Source of the DNA: a virus
Strand: one strand, 5' to 3'
DNA: 64,000 nucleotides
Virus record (IMG/VR): IMGVR_UViG_3300042197_001803
Location: 1-64,000 of that record
The notes beneath the pieces are model-generated. The model ran no database searches, had not been told where the DNA came from, and saw only the letters and a list, made by a program, of their open reading frames with translations. This document shows, piece by piece, positions 9,890 through 63,565 of the stretch. A program made the position numbers and the translations under genes. Numbering within the stretch: position 1 is the stretch's first letter; each line of letters opens with the position of its first letter.

Positions 9890-12115
9890 TCATCTTAACA
9901 CATTTACGTGACCAATCATTTCATATTTGTAATAACCGTCAAAGTTACCATAACTTAATTTCCAAACGTAAACACCAATCGGTACTAGTTTATTATTATG
10001 TCTACCATCCCAACCATCGTCAGTACTTTTGGAAACCCATATTAGTTCACCCCATCTGTTAAAAACTTCAAGTTTAAAATTATAATTAAACGCTGAGTTA
10101 TATTCTGGTTTCCAAATATTATTTAGTTGATTACCATCAGGGGTAAAAGAATTAGGGATAAAAATTAAATCTTCTGGACAATATTCTACCGAAACATTAA
10201 AATATGTTGGTGATGAAAAACAACCATTTTCTTCTCGTATAACATAGAATTGATACGTTCCTTCACTACTCCAAGTAATTTCTAAAACTTCAGTTTGTAT
10301 AATATCATTCATATAATACCACACATTGTCACCTATCAAATTACTGGATAACACCGCAAAAGTATCTATGTCTTGTTCCCCTAAACATAACATATGATAT
10401 TGACTGTTATCACCAATAACACCATTAGTTATTGGTTGAATTGTGGGTATAGGATAAACAACTACTGATGTATTTGACATGAACACACAACCATTTTGAC
10501 TATAGGTATAATAAACAGTGTCAAGACCATATAAATTTAAATTTGGACAATATTGATTATTGACAACATTGTTACTCCAAAATTGTCCGCCAAAGGGTGT
10601 TGCATTTAATTGAACACAGTTGTCGTACACACAAAAAGGCCCTATTGGTGTTATAGTTATTGGTATGTCTAAAACATAAACACTAAACGTCTCAACTTGA
10701 CTATTACATCCACTTGAATCCTGTCCGTAAACAGATATGATATTTGGATAATACCCACCACTTAAACCTGTTATGTCTAAATTTATTTGATTGGTTCCTT
10801 GACCATTAGTTATTTGTCCCGCATTTGAAGACCAAACATAATTTAAATTTGGATTACCGTTAACAACCGAGAACTGGTTTGTTATTGAATTAACACATAA
10901 TGTATCATTACCAAAAATGGTATCAATGACTACAGGTGGAGGATTTAATAAAACAACAAAAGATGTATAATCACACCCATTGTTGTCTGTTAATATATAG
11001 TTGTAAGTTCCAGGACATAATCCAGTTGGGTTAAACCCGTTTAAACCACCCGTCCAAGTAATAGTAAAAGGTCCAATACCACTACTAGGTGTTACTAATA
11101 CTTGACCATCACAAAAATTATTACACGTTGGTTCTGTTATTAAAACTGCGGGTGCAGTTAGGTTTGGTGGGCCAGGTAAAACAAATACAGTGTCAGGTCC
11201 AAAACCAACTTGTTGATTACAACTATTCCATCCTGCATTACAGGTTGGGTAAACAAATTGACAAGTATAGTACGCACCTTGTGATGGTGGTGTAACAGTT
11301 AATGTTGGTCCAGTACCTAGTGGTATTGGGTTTCCAACCTGATACCAAGTTAGTGTTGGTAATACAGGTGTACCTGAAGGGGTCCATCTATAGGCATCGT
11401 TAAGTGCTGTCCAAGCTGTAGAGTTTCTACCTGGTGTTGTAAAGGCGACAGTACCCGCCTGATTATGTATTCCTTGTACTGCGGTTCCACCCGCCCAAGT
11501 TAAACAGTTTGGTTTAATTTGTATATAATTTTCAACATAGTTGGTTGACTCATGAATCACTATGTGAAATGTACCTTGAACATTTGTACATTGAAACATA
11601 GGTACATTAATCCAACTAACAATCAACTTTCTGCACGGTTGAGTCCCCTGAACTTGATATCTTATTTGACCTCCAACACCAGGATGCCAATCTTGCCATG
11701 GACCCATAATACAGTTTTTTGGTACACTACCAGCAACTGAAGGTATGGGTGTTGAGGTGAATGTAGTTGGTTGTCCTGCGGAAAAAGAAACCCATCCATT
11801 ACTACCAACCCAAAATTGTGTGTATGTTTGCCCAAAAAAACAAAAGTTAAACCCAATATTAAATGGCCCTTGTTGAGAGTCGTCACTCATAAACAATTGA
11901 GTACCATTATTAGTTTGGTTAACATATTGTATCTGAGATACAGAATAAGTGTTTGTCTGATTAGGATTAGTACCTTGGGTACATTGGCTTAAATCAGCCG
12001 TAAGTGTTGTTGTATTAACTCCGCAAGGAAGATATTGGTCAGGACCTAAAAAAGGGCAATACTGAGAAAACGAAAAGTTGCTAAGCAACAAAAAAAAGAA
12101 AACCAAAGTTCTCAT
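9890..12115 (-). CDS. Secreted protein with T9SS-type (gliding motility-associated) C-terminal domain
   Basis: 741 aa. It has an N-terminal signal peptide (MRTLVFFFLLLSNFSFSQ, with the Bacteroidota-typical SQ end), then a beta-rich domain with FNFCFFGQTYTQFWVGSNG, then Ig/PKD-like repeats with paired Cys. The last 90 residues form a type-B T9SS C-terminal domain: IPNSFTPDGNQLNN, FNRWGELIWV, GWDGRHNN and GVYVWKLSY. In Bacteroidota this domain routes proteins through the type IX secretion system to the cell surface. In a phage it implies that the infected cell exports or displays the product. A paralogue with the same ending lies at 15517-19560. Confidence 0.85.
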   Translation of the reverse strand: MRTLVFFFLLLSNFSFSQYCPFLGPDQYLPCGVNTTTLTADLSQCTQGTNPNQTNTYSVSQIQYVNQTNNGTQLFMSDDSQQGPFNIGFNFCFFGQTYTQFWVGSNGWVSFSAGQPTTFTSTPIPSVAGSVPKNCIMGPWQDWHPGVGGQIRYQVQGTQPCRKLIVSWINVPMFQCTNVQGTFHIVIHESTNYVENYIQIKPNCLTWAGGTAVQGIHNQAGTVAFTTPGRNSTAWTALNDAYRWTPSGTPVLPTLTWYQVGNPIPLGTGPTLTVTPPSQGAYYTCQFVYPTCNAGWNSCNQQVGFGPDTVFVLPGPPNLTAPAVLITEPTCNNFCDGQVLVTPSSGIGPFTITWTGGLNGFNPTGLCPGTYNYILTDNNGCDYTSFVVLLNPPPVVIDTIFGNDTLCVNSITNQFSVVNGNPNLNYVWSSNAGQITNGQGTNQINLDITGLSGGYYPNIISVYGQDSSGCNSQVETFSVYVLDIPITITPIGPFCVYDNCVQLNATPFGGQFWSNNVVNNQYCPNLNLYGLDTVYYTYSQNGCVFMSNTSVVVYPIPTIQPITNGVIGDNSQYHMLCLGEQDIDTFAVLSSNLIGDNVWYYMNDIIQTEVLEITWSSEGTYQFYVIREENGCFSSPTYFNVSVEYCPEDLIFIPNSFTPDGNQLNNIWKPEYNSAFNYNFKLEVFNRWGELIWVSKSTDDGWDGRHNNKLVPIGVYVWKLSYGNFDGYYKYEMIGHVNVLR

Positions 12116-15516: not shown

Positions 15517-18500
15517 TTATTTAATTAAATTAATATGACCTTTTATTATGTGCCACTCACCAGTAAAGTCCCTAACTTTAATTAAATACACATACACATC
15601 TTGTTTAACATAAACACCATTATATTTACCATCCCAACCTTTAGTCATAGGTTCTAGATTCTTATATGATGCTAGTAATTCCCCCCAACGGTTAAATATT
15701 AACATTTCCGCTTCTACAATACCTGTTCCATGAATTTTAAATGTATCATTTAAACCGTCTTTGGTCGGGGTAAATGAATTTGGTTTAAAAAATGTAAAAT
15801 TAGAGTTTATAAACAAAGGATGGTATATTGAGTCGGTACACCCATATTCATTTTCAACATGTAAATATATTAAATAACGACCTGTGTCAGCGGGGAATGT
15901 ATATGATAGATGAGTTTCGGTAAACGTTTGAAACATTATTTCCCATGTATTATATAAATTACCTTGTGATAAGTTAGTAAATTCTATTTTAGTATTTGCC
16001 GTGTTAGGATTTTCAGGTGAGTAGGCAAACTCAGCCACTGGTAATGGGTAGGTTTTAATTACATCAGTAAATGTAATTGTTGAGTCACATCCTTTATCTG
16101 ATATAGCAGTTAAAGTAACAGAATAATTACCTACTGTAGTATATGTTAAATTTATGTCCTCTGTGTAGTAAGTATTCAATCCTATATCCCATATATAAGA
16201 ATTTACAATTCCTCCAGAGGCTATTGTAGTTTGATTATCTAAAAATACTTGTAATGGAACACAACCTTCAAATTGACCACCAAAATTAGGTATAGGTCTA
16301 GGATAAACTTCTAGAGTTTGTAGTAAACTATCTTGACAACCATATTGATTGGTACCAATTAGTTGTATTTGGTATTGACCCCATGGATAAACTTGTTTTG
16401 GGTTGGTTGATGTTGAAAATAAATTACCGTTCAAATACCATTGATATACAGCAGCACCACTAGATAAGTTTGTGAATGTTACCGAGTCACCCGCACATTC
16501 ATTTGGTGATATAAAACTAACAAATGGTAGTGGATAAATTTCAAATTGACTATAAGCTGTATCAATGCAACCATCTACTGATTGAACAATTAACTGTACA
16601 GGATATACTCCAGGAGAATTAAATGTATAATTAAAGTTTTGACTATTTTGTAAAGTATTATTTGTTGACCAATTCCAAGATGCAATTTGGCCAATTGAGT
16701 TGTCTGATAGTAAGGTTGGATAGGTTAAACAGTTATTGTTTGGAGTAATACCTGCAACTGGTATTTGATAGTTTCTATATTCTTGAACTAAAGTATCTAA
16801 ACATCCATCTGTATTTTGTACAATTAACTGAACTTGATAAATTCCATTTGTTTGATAGGTATGAGTAGGACTAGTTTGATTGGAAGTGTTTCCATCTCCG
16901 AAATCCCAAGACCATAAAGCTATGTTAAATAAACTTAAATCGGTAAATGGAGCAATCATACCACACGAATCAGGTAATACAAAAGCAGCAGTAGGTTTAG
17001 GATATACTGTTATCAAATCTGAAATAGTATCAGTACAACCGCCTTGGCCAGTGACAATTAAGGTAACTGGGTATTGACCATTTGTGTTATAGAAATGAGT
17101 TGGGTTCTGTTGGTTCGAGGTTTGACCATTACCTAATGACCAATTCCATCCTATAATTTGAGAGTTTGTAATTGTAGATTGGTCGGTGAATGTAAATGGA
17201 ATACCATAGCAAGTTGGAGTATGTGTAAATTGAGCAGTTGGGATAGACCAGATTGTTACTGGTTGAGTAATCGTATCAGAGCATCCTTGGTTAGAATTAA
17301 CAATTAGAGCTACATTATAAATACCAGGAGCATTGTAGGAATAATTAGTATTTGGTTGATTAGATGTTTGACCGTTACCAAAATTCCACTGATATGAAGT
17401 AATAAATCCAGGAGGAGCGATTATGGATGTACTTGATATTTGACCTGATAATCCGCAAGAATCTGGAATAGTAAAATTAGCTATTGGAGTAGGAGGAACA
17501 TTAACAATTTGCGTAGCTGTATCAGAGCATAATCCAGGACCTATAACTATTAAGGTGGCTAGGTATTGACCAGGATTAGCGTACATTTGAGTTGGATTGG
17601 TTTGGTTTGATGTATTTCCATTTCCAAATGTCCATTGATAGTTCAAGTTGGCATTACCTAAAACATTTGAGGTATTCGTAAAAGGTACAGCATTACCATG
17701 ACAAGTTTGTGGAGCTGTAAAGGAGGCTACTGGTATTGCATTAATAGTTATAGGCTGAACTTCTGAATCAGTACAGCCACCAGTTGATGTAACTGTTAAT
17801 GTTACATTATATACACCTGGGTTAGCATAATTGTAAATCGGATTCTGCTGATTTGAGGTCTGTCCATTCCCAAAATTCCACTGATAGGAAGTGATTTGTG
17901 CAGGAGGAATAACAGTTGATGTATTGGTAATCGTATCACTCAGTCCGCATGTATTTGGTAATGTAAAGGCCGCTACTGGTAAAGGATTAACGGTAACTTG
18001 TTGAACTGTAGTATCTTTACAACCACCAGGTCCCGTAACAATCAAAGTAACAGTGTAAGTACCTGGGTTTGGATATTGATACCAAGGAGAGGTTTGTACT
18101 GAAGTAGCTCCGTTACCAAAACTCCAAGCGTGTTGCATTAATCCACCACCAAATATATTAGAGGTGTTTTGAAAAGGCATATTCTGGCCAGCACAAACAT
18201 TTTGAGTTGCAAAACTAGCAACTGGTATTGCGTTTACGACTATTGGTTTAGTTATTGTATCGCTACATCCTACACTGTCTTGAACAATAAGAGTGACATT
18301 GAAATTACCTGGGGTGTTGTATGTATGAATTGTGTTTTGATTGGTGTCTGTAGTTCCATCACCGAAATCCCAAAACCAAGAAGCAATTCCTCCAGGATTG
18401 GCTATTGTAGATTGGTCTGAGAATGCTTTAGCCAAACCACATAAAGTATCTACAGCAAAATCAGCATTTGGAATAGGAGGCACAACAATAGGTAGAGTCA

Positions 18501-19560
18501 CTGTATCTTCACAACCAACTTGAGCTGATGAAATTAAAGTTACATTGTATGGTCCTGGATTTTGATAGGTATGAATTGGATTAGGAAATGATGACTGACC
18601 TCCATCACCAAATGACCAATTCCAAACTGCGGGTTGAACTCCTGGGATAATGGTGGAGTCCGTAAATTGTATTTGACCATTACATAAACTTTGCCAGTTA
18701 AAATGGGCTGTAGGAAGTACAGGATTGATGTTTGCAGACAATTGAGCTGTACAACCAGTAGCAGAAGTTAGGGTAACCTGATATACATTTTGACCCCATG
18801 TCGGATTGATAATAGATATTTGTTGAGTAGTTGCTCCATTGGACCATTGGTATCCAACAAAACCTGGAGGAGCAACAAGGGTTGCTACAGTATCACCTAC
18901 GCAATATGTAATATCAATTTGAAGAGGACGGCACTCTGCAGCCAAATACGCGTATCCGAAATGACCTGAGTAATCACAATCTCCAGTACGAGCTTCAATA
19001 GTAACTACCTGACCAACATAGTTAAGTAGATTAACACCAGTAGTAGTCCAATCTCTCCATCTCACGTTTTGATAGTTTATGAATCCAGGTACATTATTAC
19101 CCGCCGCCACTTGATAAAAGGTACAAGGAATAATTCCTCCATTCTGATTTCTAACCTGCATTTCAAAACGGGGTTGAGCAATTGGTGGGTGTCCAGGGTC
19201 TTCTAATACCACAGCATAACGATAAACGAATAAAGCATTTTGATTAGATACTGTAAAAGAGTATGTTAAACTTTCAGCCTGCGCACCCACCTGACTGTTT
19301 CCTAACCGAGCTGATTGAGGTATTCCTGGAGGAGTTCTTGTTAAAGCGGGTACAATAGGGTCTAAACCAGGTGTCATAATAGTATGACGACCATTTTGTA
19401 TTGTATTGGGGTTCGTAATTACAATTGGGCAACAATTTCCAATTCCTCCAATCCAGTTCTGAAACCCGTTCATTGAGAAATCGGCATTCGGACATTGACT
19501 TGGTTGTGACCACAATAATTTTGTGAAAAATAAAAATAAAAACAAACTTAAATTTCTCAT
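15517..19560 (-). CDS. Giant PKD-repeat surface protein with T9SS-type C-terminal domain
   Basis: 1347 aa. The signal peptide (MRNLSLFLFLFFTKLLWSQ) is followed by a domain of about 240 residues and about 12 PKD-like repeats of 80-90 aa, most with W-x-FG[D/N]G...PG.Y.V.L signatures (for example SWFWDFGDGTTD, SYQWNFGNGQTS). The last 90 residues form a type-B T9SS C-terminal domain: KPNSFTPTKDGLNDTF, FNRWGELLAS, GWDGKYNG and DVYVYLIKV. It should be exported by the host type IX system and shown on the cell surface or released. The repeats resemble host adhesins, so the gene was probably acquired from a host; to the eye its base composition is less AT-rich than its neighbours. Confidence 0.88.
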   Translation of the reverse strand: MRNLSLFLFLFFTKLLWSQPSQCPNADFSMNGFQNWIGGIGNCCPIVITNPNTIQNGRHTIMTPGLDPIVPALTRTPPGIPQSARLGNSQVGAQAESLTYSFTVSNQNALFVYRYAVVLEDPGHPPIAQPRFEMQVRNQNGGIIPCTFYQVAAGNNVPGFINYQNVRWRDWTTTGVNLLNYVGQVVTIEARTGDCDYSGHFGYAYLAAECRPLQIDITYCVGDTVATLVAPPGFVGYQWSNGATTQQISIINPTWGQNVYQVTLTSATGCTAQLSANINPVLPTAHFNWQSLCNGQIQFTDSTIIPGVQPAVWNWSFGDGGQSSFPNPIHTYQNPGPYNVTLISSAQVGCEDTVTLPIVVPPIPNADFAVDTLCGLAKAFSDQSTIANPGGIASWFWDFGDGTTDTNQNTIHTYNTPGNFNVTLIVQDSVGCSDTITKPIVVNAIPVASFATQNVCAGQNMPFQNTSNIFGGGLMQHAWSFGNGATSVQTSPWYQYPNPGTYTVTLIVTGPGGCKDTTVQQVTVNPLPVAAFTLPNTCGLSDTITNTSTVIPPAQITSYQWNFGNGQTSNQQNPIYNYANPGVYNVTLTVTSTGGCTDSEVQPITINAIPVASFTAPQTCHGNAVPFTNTSNVLGNANLNYQWTFGNGNTSNQTNPTQMYANPGQYLATLIVIGPGLCSDTATQIVNVPPTPIANFTIPDSCGLSGQISSTSIIAPPGFITSYQWNFGNGQTSNQPNTNYSYNAPGIYNVALIVNSNQGCSDTITQPVTIWSIPTAQFTHTPTCYGIPFTFTDQSTITNSQIIGWNWSLGNGQTSNQQNPTHFYNTNGQYPVTLIVTGQGGCTDTISDLITVYPKPTAAFVLPDSCGMIAPFTDLSLFNIALWSWDFGDGNTSNQTSPTHTYQTNGIYQVQLIVQNTDGCLDTLVQEYRNYQIPVAGITPNNNCLTYPTLLSDNSIGQIASWNWSTNNTLQNSQNFNYTFNSPGVYPVQLIVQSVDGCIDTAYSQFEIYPLPFVSFISPNECAGDSVTFTNLSSGAAVYQWYLNGNLFSTSTNPKQVYPWGQYQIQLIGTNQYGCQDSLLQTLEVYPRPIPNFGGQFEGCVPLQVFLDNQTTIASGGIVNSYIWDIGLNTYYTEDINLTYTTVGNYSVTLTAISDKGCDSTITFTDVIKTYPLPVAEFAYSPENPNTANTKIEFTNLSQGNLYNTWEIMFQTFTETHLSYTFPADTGRYLIYLHVENEYGCTDSIYHPLFINSNFTFFKPNSFTPTKDGLNDTFKIHGTGIVEAEMLIFNRWGELLASYKNLEPMTKGWDGKYNGVYVKQDVYVYLIKVRDFTGEWHIIKGHINLIK

Positions 19561-34584: not shown

Positions 34585-35826
34585 TCAGTCGTTAAATATT
34601 GAACCGTTTCTTCTTTGAACGTTATTAAAATTAAATTGAATTTCTTTTGACGAAACATTAGCTTTAGAGTTCATAGTTTCCATGTCAACAACGTAGTCTT
34701 CATCGTTTTGATATTCATCAAGTAAATCGTCGTTTTTAATAGTTCCGTTATATTTCTTTATGATTTCTTCGATGTTTTTCATACCTACATTACTATACAT
34801 GTTATTTAAAGTATTGTGTAATTCTTCAGCCATTTTCATACTTTCTGAAATTACCTGTACAATTTGGTATGGATTTGCGTTAGAAGCTGGTCTTCTATCT
34901 TCCAAATATCCTTTCCAACCATCATAAGTTTGTTTTGGTATTCTAATTGAAGCCCCTCTATCACTAACACCGTAAGTAAATTTATCAATAGATTGTGTTT
35001 CGTGTTTACCAGTAAGTCTCATGTAATTGTCAGTACCATAAACCTCAATGTGTTTATTTTTTCTACTATCAAAAGCCTTAAATATTGAATTAAAGTAGTC
35101 TTCACCACCTTCTTCCCTCATTCGTTTGTTTGAGAAATTTGTGTGTAATCCTGAACCATTCCAATCTTGATTACCTAATGGTTTTGGGTGATATTCAATA
35201 TAGTAGCCATATTTTTCAGAAATTTTTTCCATAAAATACCTTGACATCCACAAATCATCACAGGCCTTTAATTTACCTTTACCAAACACCTGATACTCCC
35301 ATTGACCTAGTGCGACTTCAGCGTTAACACCAGTAATATCAATACCAACATTAATACAAAACATCATGTGTTCCTCAACCAAATCCCTACCAACTACATT
35401 ACCCCCAACTCCGCAATAATATTTACCTTGAGGTTCTAATCCAAGATTTGGGTGTTTTATTGGGTTATGACCTAAAACAGGTCGGTACTTACCTTCTCTA
35501 ATAAAATATTCCTGTTCAAATCCAAACCAAAAGTTATTATCATCCTCAATTAGCGCCCTGTGATTTGATTCATGTGGTGTTCCATCAGGATTCATCACTT
35601 CACAAAATACATAAACTTTTTTATCGTTTTCTCTATATAGTCTAACAGGTTTTAAAATACAATCTGATTTTGACCCCTCAGCTTGTTTGGTTGATGAACC
35701 ATCAAAATTCCATTCAGGAATTTCTTCTAATGATAGTGGTGGATGACTTAAAATTTTAATTTTACTTCTTAAGTTTGGTTCAGGTAAATAACCATCTAAC
35801 CAAACATATTCAATTACTTGTTTCAT
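34585..35826 (-). CDS. Glutamine synthetase, GSII type
   Basis: 413 aa. Signatures include PEWNFDGSSTKQAEGSKSD (beta-grasp entry), FGFEQEYFI with metal-binding Glu, NAEVALGQWEYQV, QDWNGSGLHTNFS, TYGVSDRGASIRIP and LEDRRPASNANPYQI. This is the eukaryotic-like GSII family, also found in Bacteroidota. It should make glutamine from glutamate, ammonia and ATP. The catalytic core is complete to about residue 340; a 70-residue acidic tail is extra. It could raise the nitrogen supply for nucleotide synthesis. It lies in a row with DUF3310 and the DNA methylase. Confidence 0.93.
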   Translation of the reverse strand: MKQVIEYVWLDGYLPEPNLRSKIKILSHPPLSLEEIPEWNFDGSSTKQAEGSKSDCILKPVRLYRENDKKVYVFCEVMNPDGTPHESNHRALIEDDNNFWFGFEQEYFIREGKYRPVLGHNPIKHPNLGLEPQGKYYCGVGGNVVGRDLVEEHMMFCINVGIDITGVNAEVALGQWEYQVFGKGKLKACDDLWMSRYFMEKISEKYGYYIEYHPKPLGNQDWNGSGLHTNFSNKRMREEGGEDYFNSIFKAFDSRKNKHIEVYGTDNYMRLTGKHETQSIDKFTYGVSDRGASIRIPKQTYDGWKGYLEDRRPASNANPYQIVQVISESMKMAEELHNTLNNMYSNVGMKNIEEIIKKYNGTIKNDDLLDEYQNDEDYVVDMETMNSKANVSSKEIQFNFNNVQRRNGSIFND

Positions 35827-48154: not shown

Positions 48155-49065
48155 TTAGTTCTTTTAAATTTAACGAATAACTTAACAAACATATCCCCAC
48201 TATTATGATACCCCTTACCTTTAACCCTTAATGGTTTAGAGGTGTCAAAAATATCAGGTAATTTAATTGATATACTCCCGAGTGGGTGTGGAACCTCTAT
48301 GTTGTCTTTTTCAAGTTCATCTTTATTAAGATATGAGTTATAGATTAAATCGTCGCCAATCTTTTCAAAATTATTTTGAGGAACTGATTTAACTCTAATA
48401 ACTAAATTACCATACATACCATCAATGTAATCACCTTTACCTTGTAACTTTAAAAATTGACCGTCGTCAATACCATGAGGTAATTTTATTTTTATACTTT
48501 CCAAAACTGACTTAGTTGTTTTACCATTACAACTTAAACAGGTTTTACTATACAAAAATCCAGACCCTTTACAGTTATTACACGCCTGTCTAACCATTTG
48601 ATTGAACATACTATTACCTATCTTATGTACATGAAATCCTTGTCCATTACAAACATGACAGGTAATTCTGTCTCCCCCAGAACCATTACAGTCATTACAT
48701 TGTAATTCTCTATTATATGTAATAACTCTATCACCAGCCAAAAATGAATCTACCGCACCTATATTCATTTCAATTATTTTATCGGGAACCCCTCTTTTTC
48801 TTGAGGTATAAAATTGATTACCAAATAAATCTTCAAATGGATTAAACCCACCACCGAATGGATTTTGTTTTTTACTATCGTACATTTTTCTTTTATTTTC
48901 ATCTCCCAAAGTGTCATAAGCTTCAGATATTTTTTTAAAATTATCTTCAGACCCTCCTTTATCGGGATGATGTTCAACCGCTAATTTACGATACGCCTTT
49001 TTTATTTCATCTTGTGTGGCGTTTTCATTAACACCTAATACCGTGTAAAAATTATCCTGATTCAT
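48151..49065 (-). CDS. dnaJ: DnaJ-type chaperone (Hsp40)
   Basis: 304 aa. J domain with [17 protein letters not shown] (HPD motif), Gly/Phe segment [14 protein letters not shown], four zinc motifs ([33 protein letters not shown]) and a C-terminal client-binding domain ending [21 protein letters not shown] compact type I DnaJ. It would recruit host DnaK, for virion assembly or replication-complex remodelling as with lambda. No phage dnaK or grpE is in the window. Confidence 0.95.
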
Positions 49066-49133
49066 TTACAATATTTATTTAAAACCTTTTTAAGTTATAT
49101 TTTAATAATATAATCAAAATAAGTTATAAAGTA

Positions 49134-49787
49134 ATGAACTACTCCGAAAATTACCTTATAGTTCTTTTTAAGAATAAAAGAAAAAAGAAAATAATCAATA
49201 AATTTAAGACTCATAAAAGAGCTAAAGAATTTTTTGATAATTTATTATCGGAATCCAATAGTGTAATATTTGATAAACAATACGAAAATGGTGTTAAATC
49301 AAAATATGAAATCGCAATATTAGAACGAATGTCAGGTACTATGTTACCAATCTTTTTAAAAGATGAACTAGGTAGAAATATTAAAGTTGAATTGGATGAT
49401 GAAAACTATAAAATAATTAAGATTGAGGATTATAAAGAAGACGAGTATATTTTAGATTATTCTAATTCAAATAAATTAACAACTAAGGAATTCATTAAGA
49501 CTTTTTTGGACCCGTCAGGATTCAAATTAATATCTAAATTAAATAATAAGATTATTGTACAAAACGACGATAAAATAAATTTATTTACACTTAAAAATGA
49601 AGATGATTCTTTAAGGTTTGTAGATAGTTTAAGTGAATATTTTAGACTACATAAAAGGTTTGATTGTATCTTTGTTAAAGATTACTCAACACAACAAAGA
49701 AAGTACTTATACGAACTTTTGGTTAATAATGGTTTTCCTAAGAGTTATTTGGTTCGTCGTTCAACGACTCATCCAGTAAAAACATAA
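49134..49787 (+). CDS. Hypothetical protein (217 aa)
   Basis: A basic N-terminus (LIVLFKNKRKKKIINKFKTH) and an alpha/beta remainder. No known motif. It converges with the 83-aa gene, overlapping its 3' end by 50 nt. Divergent from dnaJ. Confidence 0.6.
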   Translation: MNYSENYLIVLFKNKRKKKIINKFKTHKRAKEFFDNLLSESNSVIFDKQYENGVKSKYEIAILERMSGTMLPIFLKDELGRNIKVELDDENYKIIKIEDYKEDEYILDYSNSNKLTTKEFIKTFLDPSGFKLISKLNNKIIVQNDDKINLFTLKNEDDSLRFVDSLSEYFRLHKRFDCIFVKDYSTQQRKYLYELLVNNGFPKSYLVRRSTTHPVKT

Positions 49788-49989
49788 ATTGAACGTTGGA
49801 TAATTCAATCATAAATTGAGAATGTCCATGGTCAATTTCTCTAAAATTTTTTTGTACTTTTTTAAACTCGTCTTTTTTAAGCTCTAATGCAACTGCTATT
49901 TTTCCATTTGGAAAAAGTGTTTCTAACCCATCGGAAATCATTGCCAGTTTTTCAATTATCCCATCAATACTTTTTTGATTCTCTTCCAT
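49738..49989 (-). CDS. Hypothetical helical protein (83 aa)
   Basis: Helical, starts MEENQKSIDGIIEKLAMISD. The 3' half overlaps the opposite-strand 217-aa gene, and the 5' part overlaps the 63-aa gene by 34 nt. Plausible as the end of a run of overlapping small genes. Confidence 0.45.
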   Translation of the reverse strand: MEENQKSIDGIIEKLAMISDGLETLFPNGKIAVALELKKDEFKKVQKNFREIDHGHSQFMIELSNVQFMFLLDESLNDEPNNS

Positions 49990-50147
49990 AGTGATAATTT
50001 TTCAGGTTGTTTAGGTAGAATATCTTCTTTTTTTAATTTTTTTATATTGGCGATGATGGTTTTTTTTTGAGATTCTAATTCTGTTTTATCCTTTAGTCTC
50101 TCCTTCTCCAACCACTCTAACGCCCTCGAGTTCGTCTTCAGTGTCAT
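49956..50147 (-). CDS. Hypothetical coiled-coil protein (63 aa)
   Basis: Lys/Glu-rich coiled coil (ALEWLEKERLKDKTELESQK) with a basic C-terminus (LWKRIKKVLMG). It overlaps the 147-aa gene by 62 nt and the 83-aa gene by 34 nt; the true start may be internal. Confidence 0.45.
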   Translation of the reverse strand: MTLKTNSRALEWLEKERLKDKTELESQKKTIIANIKKLKKEDILPKQPEKLSLWKRIKKVLMG

Positions 50148-50529
50148 CTAACTTAATCTTATTGTTTTTTATTTCAAATTGAAGTTCTTTTAAATTGTGT
50201 AAATTTTGTTTTTCAAATAATACTTTAAGTTCGTTAACTTTAGATTCAAATAGTTTTTCTTTTTCTTCTCTTTCTAAATTATATTTAACAATACTTTGAA
50301 TGTTCTTTGAAGTTAATTCAATGTCTTCTTCATTTATTTCACTAACAAAAGAAAAAAATCTATGTCCTTGAATTTGTGATTCTTGTTCTAAAATTTTATC
50401 TTCTCTAACAAATTTTTTAGGTAACTTCCATGTATTTGGAAAATTAACATCAAAACTTAGATAGTTTTTAATTTTTCTAACCGATTGGATATACGGTAGT
50501 AATGCTGAAAATTCTTTATATAAACTCAT
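50086..50529 (-). CDS. Hypothetical protein (147 aa)
   Basis: A helical/coiled-coil soluble protein (MSLYKEFSALLPYIQSVRKI...). It lies between the membrane protein and the 63-aa gene in a row of small minus-strand genes. No family recognised. Confidence 0.5.
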   Translation of the reverse strand: MSLYKEFSALLPYIQSVRKIKNYLSFDVNFPNTWKLPKKFVREDKILEQESQIQGHRFFSFVSEINEEDIELTSKNIQSIVKYNLEREEKEKLFESKVNELKVLFEKQNLHNLKELQFEIKNNKIKLDDTEDELEGVRVVGEGETKG

Positions 50530-50533
50530 TCTA

Positions 50534-50722
50534 TTAAATCTTGATTAGGTATGTTAAAATATAAGACAAAGATAAACCAAAAAACATAAGTTCCCTCCCA
50601 GACAATATAAACTGTTCGGGAGGGTTTTTACTAAGGGCACTTATAAACCTGAAAATTGTTCTACTAACATTTAGTGCTGTAAAAATAAAAACGAATAAAA
50701 AAATCGTGTCTAATGTATACAT
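50534..50722 (-). CDS. Small membrane protein (62 aa) with internal hairpin
   Basis: Two hydrophobic helices (TIFLFVFIFTALNV and FFGLSLSYILTYLI) flank a short loop SKNPPEQFILSGRE. A strong inverted repeat CCCTCCC...GGGAGGG at about 50594-50625 lies inside the coding region. The start overlaps the stop of the histone-like gene by 1 nt (TAATG), so the two are coupled. Confidence 0.55.
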   Translation of the reverse strand: MYTLDTIFLFVFIFTALNVSRTIFRFISALSKNPPEQFILSGRELMFFGLSLSYILTYLIKI

Positions 50723-50898
50723 TATTCGTTTGTTTTCTTTTCGTCTAATATTTCAAGTCTTAATTGTTGTAGTAGTGATTTAAGTTCCTGAGCTTGTTTT
50801 CTTGCTCTGGTTCCTGCACTTTTGTTACCTTTGTAAAATTTAGTAACATCGACTGATAATTCTTCAGTCAATAATTTAATTTTTTCTAAAGTTTCCAT
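50722..50898 (-). CDS. Histone H1-like (Hc1-type) protein
   Basis: 58 aa. METLEKIKLLTEELSVDVTK, then FYKGNKSAGTRARKQAQELK and SLLQQLRLEI match the Bacteroidota Hc1-like histone H1 family (KFYxGNKxAGTRxRK...QELK core). Bacterial relatives bind DNA, and in Chlamydia Hc1 condenses the chromosome. A phage copy could coat phage DNA or alter host nucleoid structure. It matches the core in full but is short, with no basic C-terminal repeat tail. Coupled to the 62-aa membrane protein. Confidence 0.8.
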   Translation of the reverse strand: METLEKIKLLTEELSVDVTKFYKGNKSAGTRARKQAQELKSLLQQLRLEILDEKKTNE

Positions 50899-50976
50899 TT
50901 TTTTATATTTTTAAAGTTTTTATCTTAATCTAAGATTAGTTTTTTTTATTATATAGTAAACAATAACTGAGTTTTT

Positions 50977-51444
50977 TTAATTTTTCAAATTTCTATCCAA
51001 AGTCTTATAAATTGTAGCTATCATATCTAAATCAGACTTGGTAAATGGTTTTTTAACATCGAATAGGTCATTGAAGAAGTTACCTATTGACTTTCTAACC
51101 TTATCGTCAGTTTGATTGTAAAATATGTCTTTAAAGAAAGACTGAAAATATTCGTAGTGGTCACCCTTTTTTAAGAATTTAATATTTTCTTTTTCAAAAT
51201 TCTCAACGGTTTTGTTCCAACACCAATCAAAGTGTTTAACATTATCGTCCTCTGACATTACTATTTTAGTTTCATTAGGTAATGTATTTTCACCCAAATA
51301 GGTATCAACTATAATTATGTTTAATGAATGTGAAAAATCAGAAAACAAATCTAGTTTTTCAGGTATGATATTGTTTACCCTAAACCATATGTCAACATCC
51401 TCAGGATTCAACGGTTTTGTTATATAATTAAAAAAATTCTCCAT
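50977..51444 (-). CDS. Hypothetical protein (155 aa)
   Basis: An acidic soluble protein with aromatic residues (MENFFNYITKPLNPEDVDIW...). Its start codon lies inside a perfect 9-bp hairpin (CTCCATAGA / TCTATGGAG) that may control translation. No family recognised. Confidence 0.6.
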   Translation of the reverse strand: MENFFNYITKPLNPEDVDIWFRVNNIIPEKLDLFSDFSHSLNIIIVDTYLGENTLPNETKIVMSEDDNVKHFDWCWNKTVENFEKENIKFLKKGDHYEYFQSFFKDIFYNQTDDKVRKSIGNFFNDLFDVKKPFTKSDLDMIATIYKTLDRNLKN

Positions 51445-51460
51445 AGATTTGGTCTATGGA
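51434..51460 (-). promoter_or_regulatory. Hairpin enclosing the start codon
   Basis: CTCCATAGA - CCAAA - TCTATGGAG on the coding strand, with the ATG of the 155-aa gene inside the 3' arm. It could block initiation until melted, or act as a weak transcription stop after the 540-aa gene; there is no U tract, so translational control is favoured. Confidence 0.5.
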
Positions 51461-51491
51461 GAAATAATAATTAATAATATAATAATGTAAA

Positions 51492-53114
51492 TTATTGTGT
51501 TTTTTGATTGTAACCCATTAATGATTTCATTCTACCAAATTCCTCATTAATTTTTTGAGCTTTTTTAGGGTCAATAGATTCTAACTTAGTCATAATTTTA
51601 TCACCCTCATCCTCACCTGTCTTATCGTTAACAATAGGTTGTGGTGCTTTATTGTATGCCTTTCTTTTAATCTTAGCTAACAAATTATCTTTTCTAATTT
51701 TATTTCTTTTTTTGTTAACATCAGACTTACCTGTGTTTGCCCACTCAGGATTATTACCTGTTCTTGAAGAACCTTCAATATTGTCTGTTACCCAATCTTC
51801 ATTAGGACTTATTCCGTCATAATCCAAATTCTCTAAACCAGCTGCGGTAAAATTATCAATATAATCTTGAACAGCTCCTGATGGTACATAAGCCTTTTTA
51901 CTCATTTTTGCTAGCTCTCCGTTTCCTTTTGGAAAGAAGTCGGGATTCTCTTTGTATTCACCTTTAGAACCATCTTTAAGATATTCTTTCATTTTTTTAG
52001 CGGTGGCCTTTAAAGCATCACTATTTTCTTTACCATCTTTAGCATGAATTTGTTTATATTTTTCTAAACCTTTAGCAGTTCCTAATTTTATATTAGATTT
52101 CTGTTCTTCCATAATAATTTTTTCAATTAATTTAATCATTTCAGATTCTTTAAGTTTAACTGATTTTTTCTTGTGTTCAGAACCCGCATACCCTTTAATA
52201 TTTTTAGCAAAGTTCGCCATTTTAACCACTGATGGATTATCAGATTTCATAGCTTTATCTATACATTTTTTAGTTACTTCACCTTCTTCAGATGCTAAAC
52301 CATTTCTTTTACACCAAGAACCAAATTTACCTTCAGTTCCTTTCTTCTCAATTTTTTCAGTAGCTTTTTGTATGAATTTTTTACCTTCTCCTAAATTTGA
52401 AGTGTCTTTATATTTTTTACCACCTAACTCAAAAGTACCACCTTTAGGGGTTTGTTTTAATTTAGCGGTAAAAGCATTACCTTCCTCAGTTTCACCTTCT
52501 TCAGAAACCATTTCACCAGCTCTAAATCCTGCAGGTGTTCTGAAATTAGGGTCGTTAATATTCTTACCTTTACTCTTCATACTTCTAAGTTTTTTAAAAT
52601 CAGCACCTGTGATTTTACCTTTTGGTTCTGCAACGTCAATTTTGTGTTGTTTTCCGTGAAGTTCTTCGCTCATTTCTAACTTTTTATGATATCTACAAGC
52701 CTCTTCATTGTATTCTTCAGAATCTTTAGAACAAAATCTGTTAACCCTATCTAATGGGTCACCATCATCATCCGCTGACGTTATTTCTAAATTATCTTCC
52801 ATAGATATTTCTTCTTTATCTTCAGCAACATAATCAAATTCTGTAGATGCGTTTTTTAAATAACCTATTTCTTCTTCATACATTCTGTTAGACCCACACT
52901 GTTCACAAGTTTCACCTTCTTTCATTTCACCACCACATTGTTCACATGTTTCCATTTTTTCGTTAACTTCAGATGACATCATTTCGTCAACTTCTTCATC
53001 GGTTGGGATTTTATTTTTTATCTTGGAAACTAATTTATTGGCTTTTTCCTCCAAAGTTTCATTAATAACCTTATTTATTAAACTATCTATGTAAGTTTGA
53101 TTTAATTTTTTCAT
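51492..53114 (-). CDS. Putative head-associated protein with N-terminal and internal targeting motifs
   Basis: 540 aa. Starts MKKLNQTYIDSLINKVINET (VINE). Residues about 57-76 carry two CxxC pairs (ETCEQCGGEM, ETCEQCGSNR), a zinc ribbon. Near the middle (about residue 325) is KSVKLKESEMIKLIEKIIME, an almost perfect internal copy of the shared peptide, suggesting processing into two products or fusion of two genes. Between them is FGSWCKRNGLASEEGEVTKK. Highly charged, low in aromatics; likely an internal head or core protein. TATTTATA box at 53128-53135. Confidence 0.55.
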   Translation of the reverse strand: MKKLNQTYIDSLINKVINETLEEKANKLVSKIKNKIPTDEEVDEMMSSEVNEKMETCEQCGGEMKEGETCEQCGSNRMYEEEIGYLKNASTEFDYVAEDKEEISMEDNLEITSADDDGDPLDRVNRFCSKDSEEYNEEACRYHKKLEMSEELHGKQHKIDVAEPKGKITGADFKKLRSMKSKGKNINDPNFRTPAGFRAGEMVSEEGETEEGNAFTAKLKQTPKGGTFELGGKKYKDTSNLGEGKKFIQKATEKIEKKGTEGKFGSWCKRNGLASEEGEVTKKCIDKAMKSDNPSVVKMANFAKNIKGYAGSEHKKKSVKLKESEMIKLIEKIIMEEQKSNIKLGTAKGLEKYKQIHAKDGKENSDALKATAKKMKEYLKDGSKGEYKENPDFFPKGNGELAKMSKKAYVPSGAVQDYIDNFTAAGLENLDYDGISPNEDWVTDNIEGSSRTGNNPEWANTGKSDVNKKRNKIRKDNLLAKIKRKAYNKAPQPIVNDKTGEDEGDKIMTKLESIDPKKAQKINEEFGRMKSLMGYNQKTQ

Positions 53115-57505: not shown

Positions 57506-58306
57506 TTACATATAGTCAAATAATATTGAGCTATCGTTTCGTAATTTTCTTAAAGCCTTTTCCTTAATCTGTCTAACCCTTTCTTTGGTTAAATTAAAAT
57601 CACCACCAATATCCTCTAAAGTTCTTGGTGTTCCTGTCAACCCAAAATAGTCCTCAATTATACATTTTTCTCGGTCATCCAAAGAAGATAATAACCTCAT
57701 CAAATTTTGTTTTAATAAATCTGTTGTATTGAATGACGCATCGGGCATTTCCGCGTCAGGGTTTTTAACAACATCAATAAGTGTATCACCATCTTCGTTA
57801 ATTTTCATGTCTAAATCAACAATGGATGGGAGACTTTGATATTTTTTATCCAAGGTACCACCATTACTTTCAACCTCTTTTTTAGCTCTATGCAAATCCT
57901 GAACCACATTTACAGGTAGTCTTATGGTTCTTGCGTTATCATTAAGTGACTGTAATATTGATTGTTTAACCCACCAAACAGCATATGAAATAAATCTAAG
58001 GTTCTTACTCCAATCAAAATTTTGAATCGCCTTCATTAAACCTAAATTACCTTCAGCAACCAAATCAGGAAAATCAAGACCTTGATTTTGATATTGTTTT
58101 GCAACAGTAATAACAAACCTCAAATTACCTTCAAGTAACTCCTTATTAATCTTATCTCTATCCGAATCAGTAAGGTTACCAGAATTAATTAATTTGGCCA
58201 ATTCTCTCTCCCTTTCAGGTGTCATGACCTTAATCTTACGAATGTCCTTTAGGTAGTACTGAATTTCTTCTTGGTTGATAGGAATTGTTGAATTTTTTTC
58301 TTTCAT
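57506..58306 (-). CDS. Phage sigma-70 factor (group 1/2-like)
   Basis: 266 aa. Region 1.2/2: YYLKDIRKIKVMTPEREREL, GNLRFVITVAKQYQNQGLDF, DLVAEGNLGLMKAIQNFDW and RFISYAVWWVKQSILQSLND. Region 4: SSLDDREKCIIEDYFGLTGT, LEDIGGDFNLTKERVRQIKE and KALRKLR. It looks like Bacteroidota RpoD but is shorter and divergent in region 3. Regions 2 and 4 both seem complete, so it should direct host RNA polymerase to phage promoters. It is the best candidate reader of the TATTTAT class. Confidence 0.95.
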   Translation of the reverse strand: MKEKNSTIPINQEEIQYYLKDIRKIKVMTPERERELAKLINSGNLTDSDRDKINKELLEGNLRFVITVAKQYQNQGLDFPDLVAEGNLGLMKAIQNFDWSKNLRFISYAVWWVKQSILQSLNDNARTIRLPVNVVQDLHRAKKEVESNGGTLDKKYQSLPSIVDLDMKINEDGDTLIDVVKNPDAEMPDASFNTTDLLKQNLMRLLSSLDDREKCIIEDYFGLTGTPRTLEDIGGDFNLTKERVRQIKEKALRKLRNDSSILFDYM

Positions 58307-58922: not shown

Positions 58923-61292
58923 TTATTGAGAGACAAAACTAATATTGTCTTCTTTTCTAATTTTAATAATGTTATCCGCCCAATTATTAACCAATGGATT
59001 GTGGGTGATTACAAATATCTTTTCAAAATATTCTTTTATTTTGCTAAAGAATTCAGAAACCATGTCAAGATTATCATTAGATATCTTACCAAAAACTTCA
59101 TCGAATACAACTATATTTGGTTTAGGTAATGAACATATTTTACTTAATACCGCTCTTAAAGCTAAAGAAGCTATAGTTCTTTCATATCCTGAACCTGATG
59201 ACATTAACTTTTCTATCTGAGTGTTGTTATCAATCATAATAAATTCAACCTCATTTTTATCGTTAATTCTAATTTCAAGTCTGAAGTGAGAACTGTCCTC
59301 AAGAAGTCTTTGTAATTCAGAATTAATTAATGGCATCATTGTTTTCATAATCATTTTTGAAATCCCATTTTTACCAAAAATTTCTAAATATATTTTAAAT
59401 ATTTTTTCTTTTTCCGCCTCTTCTTCTATCTTAATAATTGTTTCTTTATTTTCTTTAATTTTGGTAGTTAAAGTTTTTATTTGATATTCAAGATTATCAA
59501 TGTTTCTTTGAGTCTGTGTTTTTTCCCTATCAAGTTCATCTAATCTTAAACCAGCTTTAATTATTAGACCGTCTGTTTTGTTGTTTTCAGCAATCTTATC
59601 CTGAACTTCATTATACCTATCTAATTTAAGATTTAAAGCTTGAATTTTAAGATTGATACTTTCAATACTTACTTCATACTTTTCTTTGATAAGTTTGTTT
59701 TTCTCGTACTCATCGAATTCTTTCTTAAGTTTTACGAAACCTTGTTCTTTGCTGTTTAAATCCTGCATTAACTTAGTTTTTTGGTCTTTATGCACGATAA
59801 ACCCATCAAGTTCGGCTATTTTAGAGTTAGTTATTGCCGCGTTCATTAACTCAATACCACAATGTTCACATTTGATTCCACCCTCAACAGAAGACTTTAA
59901 AGTATTGATATCGGATATTTGCGTATCAATACGTATCAAATCTTTATAAACCTCAGCAACTTCTTCTTTAACCAAATCATGTTCATCTTCGTGATAATAA
60001 GATGAAGGTTCAATAACTTTAACATCTTGTAATTGTTTTTCAACTTTAACCCTATCGTTTATAAAGTTATTAATTTCTTCTTGAACTTTGTTAGGTGAAA
60101 TTAAACTAATGTCTTTATCAATGGTATGTTTACTTTTTAATAAATTATCTCGGTATTCATTACCTATTGTTATTTTACCTAATATTTCTTTTAAAGATTC
60201 TTTTGAATTATCTATGTCAATATTATATTCACCAATTTTAATTGCGTATTCTTCATTATCTGTTTTTAATTTTTCACTACTATAAACATTAGATAACATT
60301 GATTTAGAAAATTGACTATATATTTCCTTTGCAACATCTTCTTTTCTTTTAAGAAAATCTAAACCCATAAATCGTGATAATACCTGACCTCTAGCGGTTG
60401 GTTTAGAATCTATTAGTTCTTCTAAGTTAGTTGCGGTTGTTAAAATTGTCATTAAAAAATCGTCTTTTGAGCCAATTGAAGTTTTAATGAACGCTTCTGT
60501 TTCTCTCCTTTGTTCACCAGTAAAATTTTGTAAACTACCATCTGATAGTTTTTTAAAAAAATCTAATTCGGTTTTAACATTCCAATCACCTGATTTAGAT
60601 TTTTTTCTCTCAATATTTCGGATAATTATATATTCATCCCCATCGATAATAATTTCACCTTTAACATGAACTTTATCTCGATTGGTAAACCTATTAAATA
60701 CTTCTTCAGCTTTACTTGTTTTAGTGGTTTCATTAAAGAAAAGAAATAATAATAAATCAACGGTTAATACAGTTTTACCACCAAAATTAGGCGGATTAGA
60801 TTCAACAACATTAATACCATTACACTTATCAAAATCTAATTTTTGGTTCTCACCGTAGGATAAGAAATTTGAAAACTCTATATTTTTAATATACCATCTC
60901 TTAAACGGTGCCACATCGCTACTAGTTGCCGCCAATTGATTATCAACTACCGAATTTAATTCAACTATTTTATCGGTTAAACTTTCATCGTACTTAGTCT
61001 TAAGGTAAGTTTTAATTAAATCAAGTTGGTAATTTTCATCAAGAATGTTAAATGAGATGTCAACATTATTTTCAACCTCTTCAGTAATTTTAGTTTTGGT
61101 AATAACATTAACATTATTAGTTACATACTTTTTTTGAAAGTAGTGTCTTACGCTTTTTATTTTTTCTTGTGTAAAATTTTCAGCATAATCTTCCCATATT
61201 ACCTGAATATAGGGATTATCTAAATTTTCGATATTAATATCTTTTATCATTATTTTATAATTAAATTCTACATGTGGATTAAATAAATCCAT
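58923..61292 (-). CDS. SbcC/Rad50-type recombination ATPase (T4 gp46-like)
   Basis: 789 aa. An N-terminal extension of about 140 residues precedes WYIKNIEFSNFLSYGENQKL and a Walker A variant NPPNFGGKTVLTVD (about residue 169). Long coiled coils flank a zinc hook GIKCEHCGIEL (about residue 472). The C-terminal lobe has the ABC signature MSSGSGYERTIASLALRAVL and Walker B NIVVFDEVFGKIS. With the SbcD-like nuclease it should process DNA ends for recombination-dependent replication. Unlike T4, the two subunits are separated by four genes. Confidence 0.93.
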   Translation of the reverse strand: MDLFNPHVEFNYKIMIKDINIENLDNPYIQVIWEDYAENFTQEKIKSVRHYFQKKYVTNNVNVITKTKITEEVENNVDISFNILDENYQLDLIKTYLKTKYDESLTDKIVELNSVVDNQLAATSSDVAPFKRWYIKNIEFSNFLSYGENQKLDFDKCNGINVVESNPPNFGGKTVLTVDLLLFLFFNETTKTSKAEEVFNRFTNRDKVHVKGEIIIDGDEYIIIRNIERKKSKSGDWNVKTELDFFKKLSDGSLQNFTGEQRRETEAFIKTSIGSKDDFLMTILTTATNLEELIDSKPTARGQVLSRFMGLDFLKRKEDVAKEIYSQFSKSMLSNVYSSEKLKTDNEEYAIKIGEYNIDIDNSKESLKEILGKITIGNEYRDNLLKSKHTIDKDISLISPNKVQEEINNFINDRVKVEKQLQDVKVIEPSSYYHEDEHDLVKEEVAEVYKDLIRIDTQISDINTLKSSVEGGIKCEHCGIELMNAAITNSKIAELDGFIVHKDQKTKLMQDLNSKEQGFVKLKKEFDEYEKNKLIKEKYEVSIESINLKIQALNLKLDRYNEVQDKIAENNKTDGLIIKAGLRLDELDREKTQTQRNIDNLEYQIKTLTTKIKENKETIIKIEEEAEKEKIFKIYLEIFGKNGISKMIMKTMMPLINSELQRLLEDSSHFRLEIRINDKNEVEFIMIDNNTQIEKLMSSGSGYERTIASLALRAVLSKICSLPKPNIVVFDEVFGKISNDNLDMVSEFFSKIKEYFEKIFVITHNPLVNNWADNIIKIRKEDNISFVSQ

Positions 61293-62785: not shown

Positions 62786-63565
62786 TTAAGCGTTTGCCAA
62801 TTTTTCAGTACCGTTAATAATGTCGTCAAATGATTTTAATCTAAAAGATAAAAATGGTTTTGGGTTATCCAAATCAACAAATTCATAAGAATCATTCAAT
62901 ACGTCATAGATACCAAACCCATGTTTTTTTATCGTTTCACCATAATTTTGTTGAATTGTTGAACCAACCATGTAAGCTTTTTTCTTGTTGGGGATATCAA
63001 ATATTTGTCGCTTATGTATGTCACCACATAGTACAAGGTCAACCCCGTTGAACTTAGATGAATCAAAACCACTCTCAAATTTATATCCGATGTCAGTAGA
63101 TAAGCCAATAACTGGTCCGTGAAATAAACCAATCTTAATCCTATCTGTTGTTGGAATTTCAGGAGGTAGGTTGTGTTCCATAAGTGAGTAAACAACCCAC
63201 TCAATGTTTTCATCTTCGTAAGTACCTCTGTTTTTGTAATATACAATATTTTCATTCTGTAATGAATCGATAATTGGTGTTAAAGCATCCAATCTTTGAG
63301 TGTTATTCTCAAGAAAGTCGTGATTACCAATAATAATTATCGTCTTAGATATTTTAGCACATTCACTCAAAACCCAAGAAACCATTTCAATTAATTCAGG
63401 GGTCATTTGATTTTTACTGTGTACCAAATCACCAGTAAAAACTATACGGTCAGGTTTAATTTCCTTAAATCGCGACAACATGTCTCGAATAATGTCTCGA
63501 TATAAATCATGGTCTTTAAAAAGACGAATATGTAGGTCTGAGAAATGTACTAATTTACTAATCAT
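62786..63565 (-). CDS. SbcD/Mre11-type nuclease (T4 gp47-like)
   Basis: 259 aa. Calcineurin-like phosphoesterase motifs: LVHFSDLHIRLFKDHDL, RIVFTGDLVHSKNQ, TIIIIGNHDFLENN, KIGLFHGPVIG and LVLCGDIHKRQIF. The nuclease domain only, without the long capping region of cellular SbcD. Works with the SbcC-like ATPase in recombination and DNA-end processing. The start overlaps the 68-aa gene by 8 nt. Confidence 0.93.
   Translation of the reverse strand: MISKLVHFSDLHIRLFKDHDLYRDIIRDMLSRFKEIKPDRIVFTGDLVHSKNQMTPELIEMVSWVLSECAKISKTIIIIGNHDFLENNTQRLDALTPIIDSLQNENIVYYKNRGTYEDENIEWVVYSLMEHNLPPEIPTTDRIKIGLFHGPVIGLSTDIGYKFESGFDSSKFNGVDLVLCGDIHKRQIFDIPNKKKAYMVGSTIQQNYGETIKKHGFGIYDVLNDSYEFVDLDNPKPFLSFRLKSFDDIINGTEKLANA

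What the first reader, a model, noticed from the sequence alone, without database searches (positions are those of the whole stretch)
50722..50898. Small histone H1-like (Hc1) protein in a phage
The 58-aa frame contains the KFYxGNKxAGTRxRKxxQELK core of the Bacteroidota Hc1-like family, with nearly every core position present. The gene is easy to overlook because of its size. It is coupled to a small membrane protein. A phage nucleoid protein could compact phage DNA or displace host regulators.
Basis: partly seen in the sequence, partly recalled or inferred. Interest (0 to 1): 0.72.

Follow-up and report, generated by a model that had tools for sequence, protein, structure and literature searches.

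The report
Phage Hc1 protein with membrane partner
The window, part of a large virus of Bacteroidota bacteria, really does carry a tiny protein of the Hc1 ("histone H1-like") family; such genes were already reported in this kind of phage, but here the gene is a fixed part of the genome, always followed by a tiny membrane protein whose messenger RNA folds into a conserved hairpin.

Summary
Window 50722-50898 (-) encodes a 58-aa protein matching Pfam PF07432 (Hc1) over the whole profile, 72.2 bits against a cut-off of 23.5, E = 3e-20. It is conserved (dN/dS about 0.14), single-copy and, in a test with an independent marker, present in 67 of 67 relatives that cover the region. Predicted fold: a confident two-helix hairpin, with A28, R31, R33 and R47 identical in all phage and bacterial sequences compared. 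DNA binding is unproven: chlamydial Hc1 binds DNA through a lysine-rich C-terminal tail, and no phage Hc1 examined has a long one.

It is not new in kind. PF07432 was reported in 2025 in four complete "moraphages"; the window's DnaJ and glutamine synthetase fit that lineage.

New here: (1) Hc1 occurs in several phage groups, including at least 443 contigs resembling a cyanophage, yet in only about 20 of 50,697 annotated phage records; (2) in this lineage it is always followed, almost without a gap, by a two-helix membrane protein; (3) that gene carries a covarying, coding-strand mRNA hairpin, one copy per genome; (4) a near-Hc1-specific conserved leader precedes Hc1. Best reading: a small nucleic-acid-binding architectural protein made in a coupled, RNA-regulated cassette; its biochemical role is inference.

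The parts
50722..50898 (-). Hc1-family protein, 58 aa, predicted helical hairpin (helices 2-22 and 26-56)
   Evidence: PF07432 E 3.1e-20, 72.2 bits; AlphaFold2 mean pLDDT 96.2; dN/dS about 0.14
50534..50722 (-). Small two-helix membrane protein, 62 aa; its ATG overlaps the Hc1 stop by one base (TAATG)
   Evidence: Partner in 81/81 loci and 67/67 independent-marker loci; helices 4-31 and 42-61, pLDDT 89.8; hydropathy maxima near both ends; no Pfam family
50579..50650 (-). Conserved mRNA hairpin inside the membrane-protein coding sequence
   Evidence: Covariance model R1 hit E 2.7e-10 in the window; covariation counts; synonymous-codon null; coding-strand bias GU 79 vs CA 11
50916..50960 (-). 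Hc1 leader element TTTACW...AATAAAC, probable promoter/5' UTR; degenerate second half in the window (GATAAAAAC)
   Evidence: Alignment of 47 leaders; AATAAAC within 45 nt upstream in 65/80 Hc1 genes, at most 19/74 for any other conserved gene
50086..50529 (-). Conserved downstream gene (147 aa, unknown), flank of the cassette
   Evidence: 80/80 loci, same strand
50977..51444 (-). Conserved upstream gene (155 aa, unknown), other flank of the cassette
   Evidence: 80/80 loci, same strand

Best explanation
The gene encodes a genuine Hc1-family (PF07432) protein that is a core gene of a large-phage lineage of Bacteroidota (moraphage-like). It folds as a two-helix hairpin that probably dimerises. 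Its invariant arginines (R31, R33, R47, with K34 nearly invariant) lie at the start and on the second helix and probably contact nucleic acid, so it most likely acts as a small nucleoid-type architectural protein on phage and/or host DNA during infection. It is made in a cassette: its own conserved leader, then Hc1, then a translationally coupled two-helix membrane protein whose coding sequence carries a conserved mRNA hairpin, probably tuning the relative amounts of the two proteins or the stability of the message. Shown: family, conservation, core status, predicted fold, gene coupling, hairpin covariation. Inferred: dimerisation, nucleic-acid binding, the role of the membrane partner, and the role of the hairpin and leader.
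For: Pfam match; all 34 sampled phage and bacterial relatives match PF07432; 67/67 loci fetched through the sigma factor and carrying both flanking genes have Hc1 and the membrane partner; one copy per record in 25/25 and 9/9 records; strong purifying selection; A28, R31, R33 and R47 at 100% in 166 phage and 75 bacterial unique sequences; confident helical hairpin; no HU/IHF (PF00216) found in ten relatives of 274-322 kb, so no competing HU-type nucleoid protein; conserved coupling and hairpin.
Against: No DNA-binding evidence exists for a tail-less Hc1. Chlamydial DNA binding maps to the tail that is absent here (PMC2848022). Net charge is only +2. Structure searches gave no match at E <= 0.001, so no DNA-binding relative by fold. 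Universal coupling to a membrane protein fits a free nucleoid protein poorly. Hairpin function is untested.
Confidence: 0.5

Rival explanations
1. Hc1 and the two-helix membrane protein form one functional unit at the membrane (for example anchoring phage DNA or replication sites, or modifying the envelope), and Hc1 is not a general nucleoid protein.
For: The partner follows Hc1 in 81/81 and 67/67 loci. A diverged homologue of the partner also follows Hc1 in more distant phages (L169, L195, L196, L200, L203, L207, L211, L303, L306, L311, L314, L315); profile comparison gives E 1e-25 to 3e-11, though both are hydrophobic.
Against: Bacterial Hc1 and the cyanophage group have no such partner, so the Hc1 domain can work without it. 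Adjacent coupled phage genes need not interact.
Confidence: 0.22
2. Phage Hc1 acts on the host's own Hc1: it forms mixed dimers through the shared domain and weakens or redirects the host nucleoid protein, as some phages do with other nucleoid proteins.
For: 148 of 247 sampled genomes of the phylum of G026 (Bacteroidota) encode Hc1. The chlamydial N-terminal domain dimerises (PMC2848022). A phage protein that inhibits a host nucleoid protein is on record: LUZ24 gp4 against MvaT (PMC4635203).
Against: 99 of 247 genomes had no hit. The window protein is only about 41-45% identical to the flavobacterial-type Hc1s in the alignment. Bacterial Hc1s mostly lack tails too, so the phage copy is not an obvious truncated dominant negative.
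Confidence: 0.13
3. The protein mainly binds RNA or ribosomes and affects translation or message stability.
For: Basic, arginine-conserved small helical protein; chlamydial Hc1 and Hc2 are reported to affect RNA and translation (PMC2848022; Pedersen 1994 as cited in PMC12619734). A structured mRNA lies in the same cassette.
Against: No fold or sequence match to a ribosomal or RNA-binding protein that survives inspection; the mL100 hit is a repeat artefact.
Confidence: 0.1
4. A recently captured host gene with no selected role in the phage.
For: Bacteroidota commonly carry Hc1.
Against: Core status, purifying selection, a coherent moraphage group separate from bacterial sequences (weak support on 57 columns), fixed synteny.
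Confidence: 0.02

Closest known systems
Bacteroidota Hc1 proteins (Pfam PF07432)
   Same: Whole profile matched, same length (about 58 aa), same invariant A28, R31, R33, R47 and near-invariant G24, K34
   Different: About 36-56% identical to bacterial copies against 72-86% among the phage copies aligned; phage copies sit in a coupled cassette with a membrane protein
Moraphage histone H1-like protein (PMC12619734, 2025)
   Same: Same Pfam family, same type of large aquatic phage with Bacteroidota hosts, DnaJ and glutamine synthetase genes
   Different: That paper reports the gene in four complete genomes and suggests genome compaction; I found no mention of the membrane partner, leader, hairpin or wider phage distribution in the passages read. 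The moraphage sequences themselves were not available to compare
Chlamydial HctA/Hc1
   Same: Weak similarity to the N-terminal half
   Different: Lacks the lysine-rich DNA-binding C-terminus; far below the HctA cut-off
Synechococcus phage S-SRM01 'histone H1' (MW015081.1)
   Same: 62-aa Hc1-type protein in a cultured phage, same invariant core
   Different: Different host phylum, no membrane partner, distinct group in the tree
Other phage proteins that mimic or act on nucleoid proteins: NinH (Fis-like, PMC7166090), phage H-NS (PMC3097231), LUZ24 gp4 (PMC4635203)
   Same: Small phage-encoded proteins acting in the host's DNA-organising system
   Different: Unrelated families; those have experimental support, this one has none

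Membership tests
PF07432 (Hc1 domain family) | Profile score above the curated cut-off over the full domain | tested here: met
   72.2 bits against 23.5, profile 1-57 of 57
PF07432 (Hc1 domain family) | Conserved core GNxxAGTRxRK and downstream arginine | tested here: met
   All present; A28, R31, R33, R47 at 100% in 166 phage and 75 bacterial unique sequences
Chlamydial HctA (NCBIfam NF051889) | Score above the equivalog cut-off | tested here: not met
   17.7 bits against 100
Chlamydial HctA (NCBIfam NF051889) | Lysine-rich C-terminal DNA-binding tail | tested here: not met
   Protein ends with the domain; phage copies extend at most 10 residues past it
Eukaryotic linker histone H1 | Winged-helix globular domain | tested here: not met
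   Model is a two-helix hairpin; no significant fold match in the PDB
Nucleoid-associated / histone-like protein (functional class) | DNA binding and compaction | not testable with these tools
   Needs a gel shift or nucleoid imaging
Moraphages (large aquatic phages of Bacteroidota) | DnaJ, glutamine synthetase and PF07432 in a large phage genome | tested here: met
   DnaJ, glutamine synthetase, Hc1; syntenic relatives up to 322 kb. Supporting features, not the lineage definition
Moraphages (large aquatic phages of Bacteroidota) | Marker-gene phylogeny with the published genomes | not tested
   Published genomes were not retrieved

The most novel reading that the evidence does not exclude
Hc1 and the two-helix membrane protein form a dedicated phage system that ties a small nucleic-acid-binding protein to the membrane, with its output set by a conserved structured mRNA inside the membrane-protein gene and a cassette-specific leader. 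The hairpin would be an undescribed cis-regulatory RNA family.
Probability: 0.25. Interest if true: 0.72.

Novelty: new member of a known kind. Interest (0 to 1): 0.45.

Why it matters
Phage-encoded nucleoid proteins bear on how large phages organise DNA and take over host chromosomes. The Hc1 gene appears to be core in a whole lineage and widespread in uncultured phages, but almost absent from cultured ones, so it is easily missed (PHROGs has no family matching the window protein at E <= 0.01). A cultured cyanophage, S-SRM01, makes the function directly testable. The covarying hairpin within a short phage coding sequence is a clear, checkable RNA finding, independent of what Hc1 does.

Tried and rejected
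1) PDB hit to mitoribosomal protein mL100 (E 1.8e-5): rejected; three identical repeats at 8.7 bits each, the GNxxAGTR core not conserved. 2) Leader element as a genome-wide phage promoter: rejected at that stringency; exact pattern counts in whole records do not clearly exceed the reversed-pattern control in most records, while near Hc1 it is specific. 3) Hairpin as an intrinsic terminator: not supported; the scan found none inside the membrane gene. 4) Hairpin as a DNA-level palindrome or antisense structure: disfavoured by 79 G-U against 11 C-A cells. 5) Hairpin as a by-product of protein conservation: disfavoured by the synonymous-codon null, 48 rows with at least 8 of 9 core pairs against a mean of 8.2, maximum 16. 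6) Fold searches: only generic helical hairpins, nothing at E <= 0.001. 7) Rfam: no match in 49000-52000 up to E 1. 8) Expression timing from gene order: not decidable; the neighbours include a sigma-70 family factor and SbcC but also an amidase.

Full report
Observation. The ORF lies at window 50722-50898 on the minus strand and encodes 58 aa. PF07432 (Hc1) matches it end to end at E 3.1e-20, 72.2 bits, far above the cut-off of 23.5. PHROGs has no convincing family for it. The record holding the window is a 95,857-base virus record with one Hc1.

Relatives. A scan of viral contigs confirmed 151 relatives; the best 80 were kept, 76-86% identical, on contigs up to 321 kb. Conservation is by purifying selection: median dN/dS about 0.14 over 501 unsaturated pairs. 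Synteny is tight. Around Hc1 the order of genes from about 44.8 to 58.9 kb is shared, including a D12 adenine methyltransferase, DnaJ, an amidase and a sigma-70 family factor, with SbcC beside it. Because those loci were chosen by Hc1, I repeated the test with an independent marker, the sigma factor: of 80 loci, 67 carry both genes that flank the cassette, and all 67 have Hc1 and the membrane partner. Records searched whole have one copy each, and ten relatives of 274-322 kb have no HU/IHF match.

Prior art. PMC12619734 (2025) describes moraphages, large aquatic phages of Bacteroidota with DnaJ, DnaK and glutamine synthetase, and reports PF07432 in its four complete genomes, suggesting genome compaction. 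The window has DnaJ and glutamine synthetase, so it is probably of this lineage; I could not compare it with the published genomes. The core claim of the finding is therefore already in print in general form.

Wider distribution. In the annotated phage collection only about 20 of 50,697 records match, nearly all very large phages. In bacteria, 148 of 247 sampled genomes of one phylum (Bacteroidota) have a match. A tree of 99 rows groups the moraphage copies together and scatters other phage copies among several groups, but 57 columns resolve little.

Structure and mechanism. AlphaFold2 gives a two-helix hairpin, helices 2-22 and 26-56, mean pLDDT 96. A28, R31, R33 and R47 are identical in all 166 phage and 75 bacterial unique sequences, G29 and K34 nearly so. 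Structure searches give only generic helical hairpins. [quoted passage not shown] The window protein has no such tail, nor does any phage copy examined, and its net charge is +2. Dimerisation and nucleic-acid contact through the arginines are therefore inferences.

Membrane partner. A 59-66 aa hydrophobic protein starts within -8 to +6 nt of the Hc1 stop in 81 of 81 loci; in the window the overlap is TAATG. The model has two helices and there is no Pfam family. Diverged versions follow Hc1 in more distant phages, with profile similarity E 1e-25 to 3e-11; hydrophobic composition may inflate these values. Bacteria and the cyanophage group lack it.

mRNA hairpin. Within the partner's coding sequence lies an inverted repeat whose arms change together. 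Free energy against synonymous-codon shuffles averages z = -2.85 over 84 unique sequences, 66 below -2. With the stem defined on one relative, 80.8% of cells pair against 60.8% (SD 1.3) in synonymous shuffles, and 48 of 77 rows have at least 8 of 9 core pairs against a mean of 8.2. On a 29-row alignment chosen from rows that form the stem, 12 of 16 pairs show changes on both sides, with 45 such cells against 14.4 expected, and 88.4% paired against 38-51% in slid controls; that subset was selected for the stem, so the paired percentage is biased upward, while one search used all rows. G-U cells outnumber C-A cells 79 to 11, pointing to the coding-strand RNA. A covariance model finds one strong site per genome in ten records, in the window at 50579-50650, E 2.7e-10. 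The window and a few relatives use a shifted inner stem, and one subgroup (for example L036, L041, L054, L064) lacks the hairpin. Rfam has no match.

Leader. Upstream of Hc1 in most relatives is TTTACW, about 29-35 nt, AATAAAC. AATAAAC lies within 45 nt upstream in 65 of 80 Hc1 genes, against at most 19 of 74 for any other conserved gene. The window's copy is degenerate in its second half. A promoter or 5' UTR role is inferred.

Verdict. A real Hc1-family protein and a core gene of a large-phage lineage; new member of a known kind. The cassette with a coupled membrane protein and a covarying mRNA hairpin appears undescribed in the sources I could search and is the more interesting part. DNA compaction remains a hypothesis.

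Noticed in passing
window 50579-50650 (-): Conserved, covarying mRNA hairpin inside the small membrane-protein gene, one strong copy per genome, no Rfam match.
   Followed up: yes
window 15517-19560 (-) and 9890-12115 (-): Two large proteins (1347 and 741 aa) with PKD-type domains (one also a weak SprB repeat) and a C-terminal CHU_C type IX secretion signal domain, odd for a phage: possible use of the host type IX secretion system.
   Followed up: no
L164 and viral loci L220-L299: Hc1-type 'histone H1' of cultured cyanophage S-SRM01 has at least 443 relatives in viral contigs but is otherwise unmatched in the annotated phage collection; no membrane partner.
   Followed up: partly
L139: One bacterial Hc1 carries a lysine/alanine-rich C-terminal tail (AAKAAPAKKAAAPAAKKAAPAKKK), unlike the other copies examined.
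   Followed up: no
window 57506-58306, 58923-61292, 62786-63565 (-): Sigma-70 family factor close to SbcC-like and metallophosphoesterase genes, an arrangement reminiscent of the T4 gp55/gp46/gp47 region.
   Followed up: no
window 34585-35826 (-): Glutamine synthetase, an auxiliary metabolic gene also reported in moraphages.
   Followed up: no
window 50916-50960 (-): Hc1-specific leader element TTTACW-N29..35-AATAAAC conserved in relatives, degenerate in the window.
   Followed up: partly
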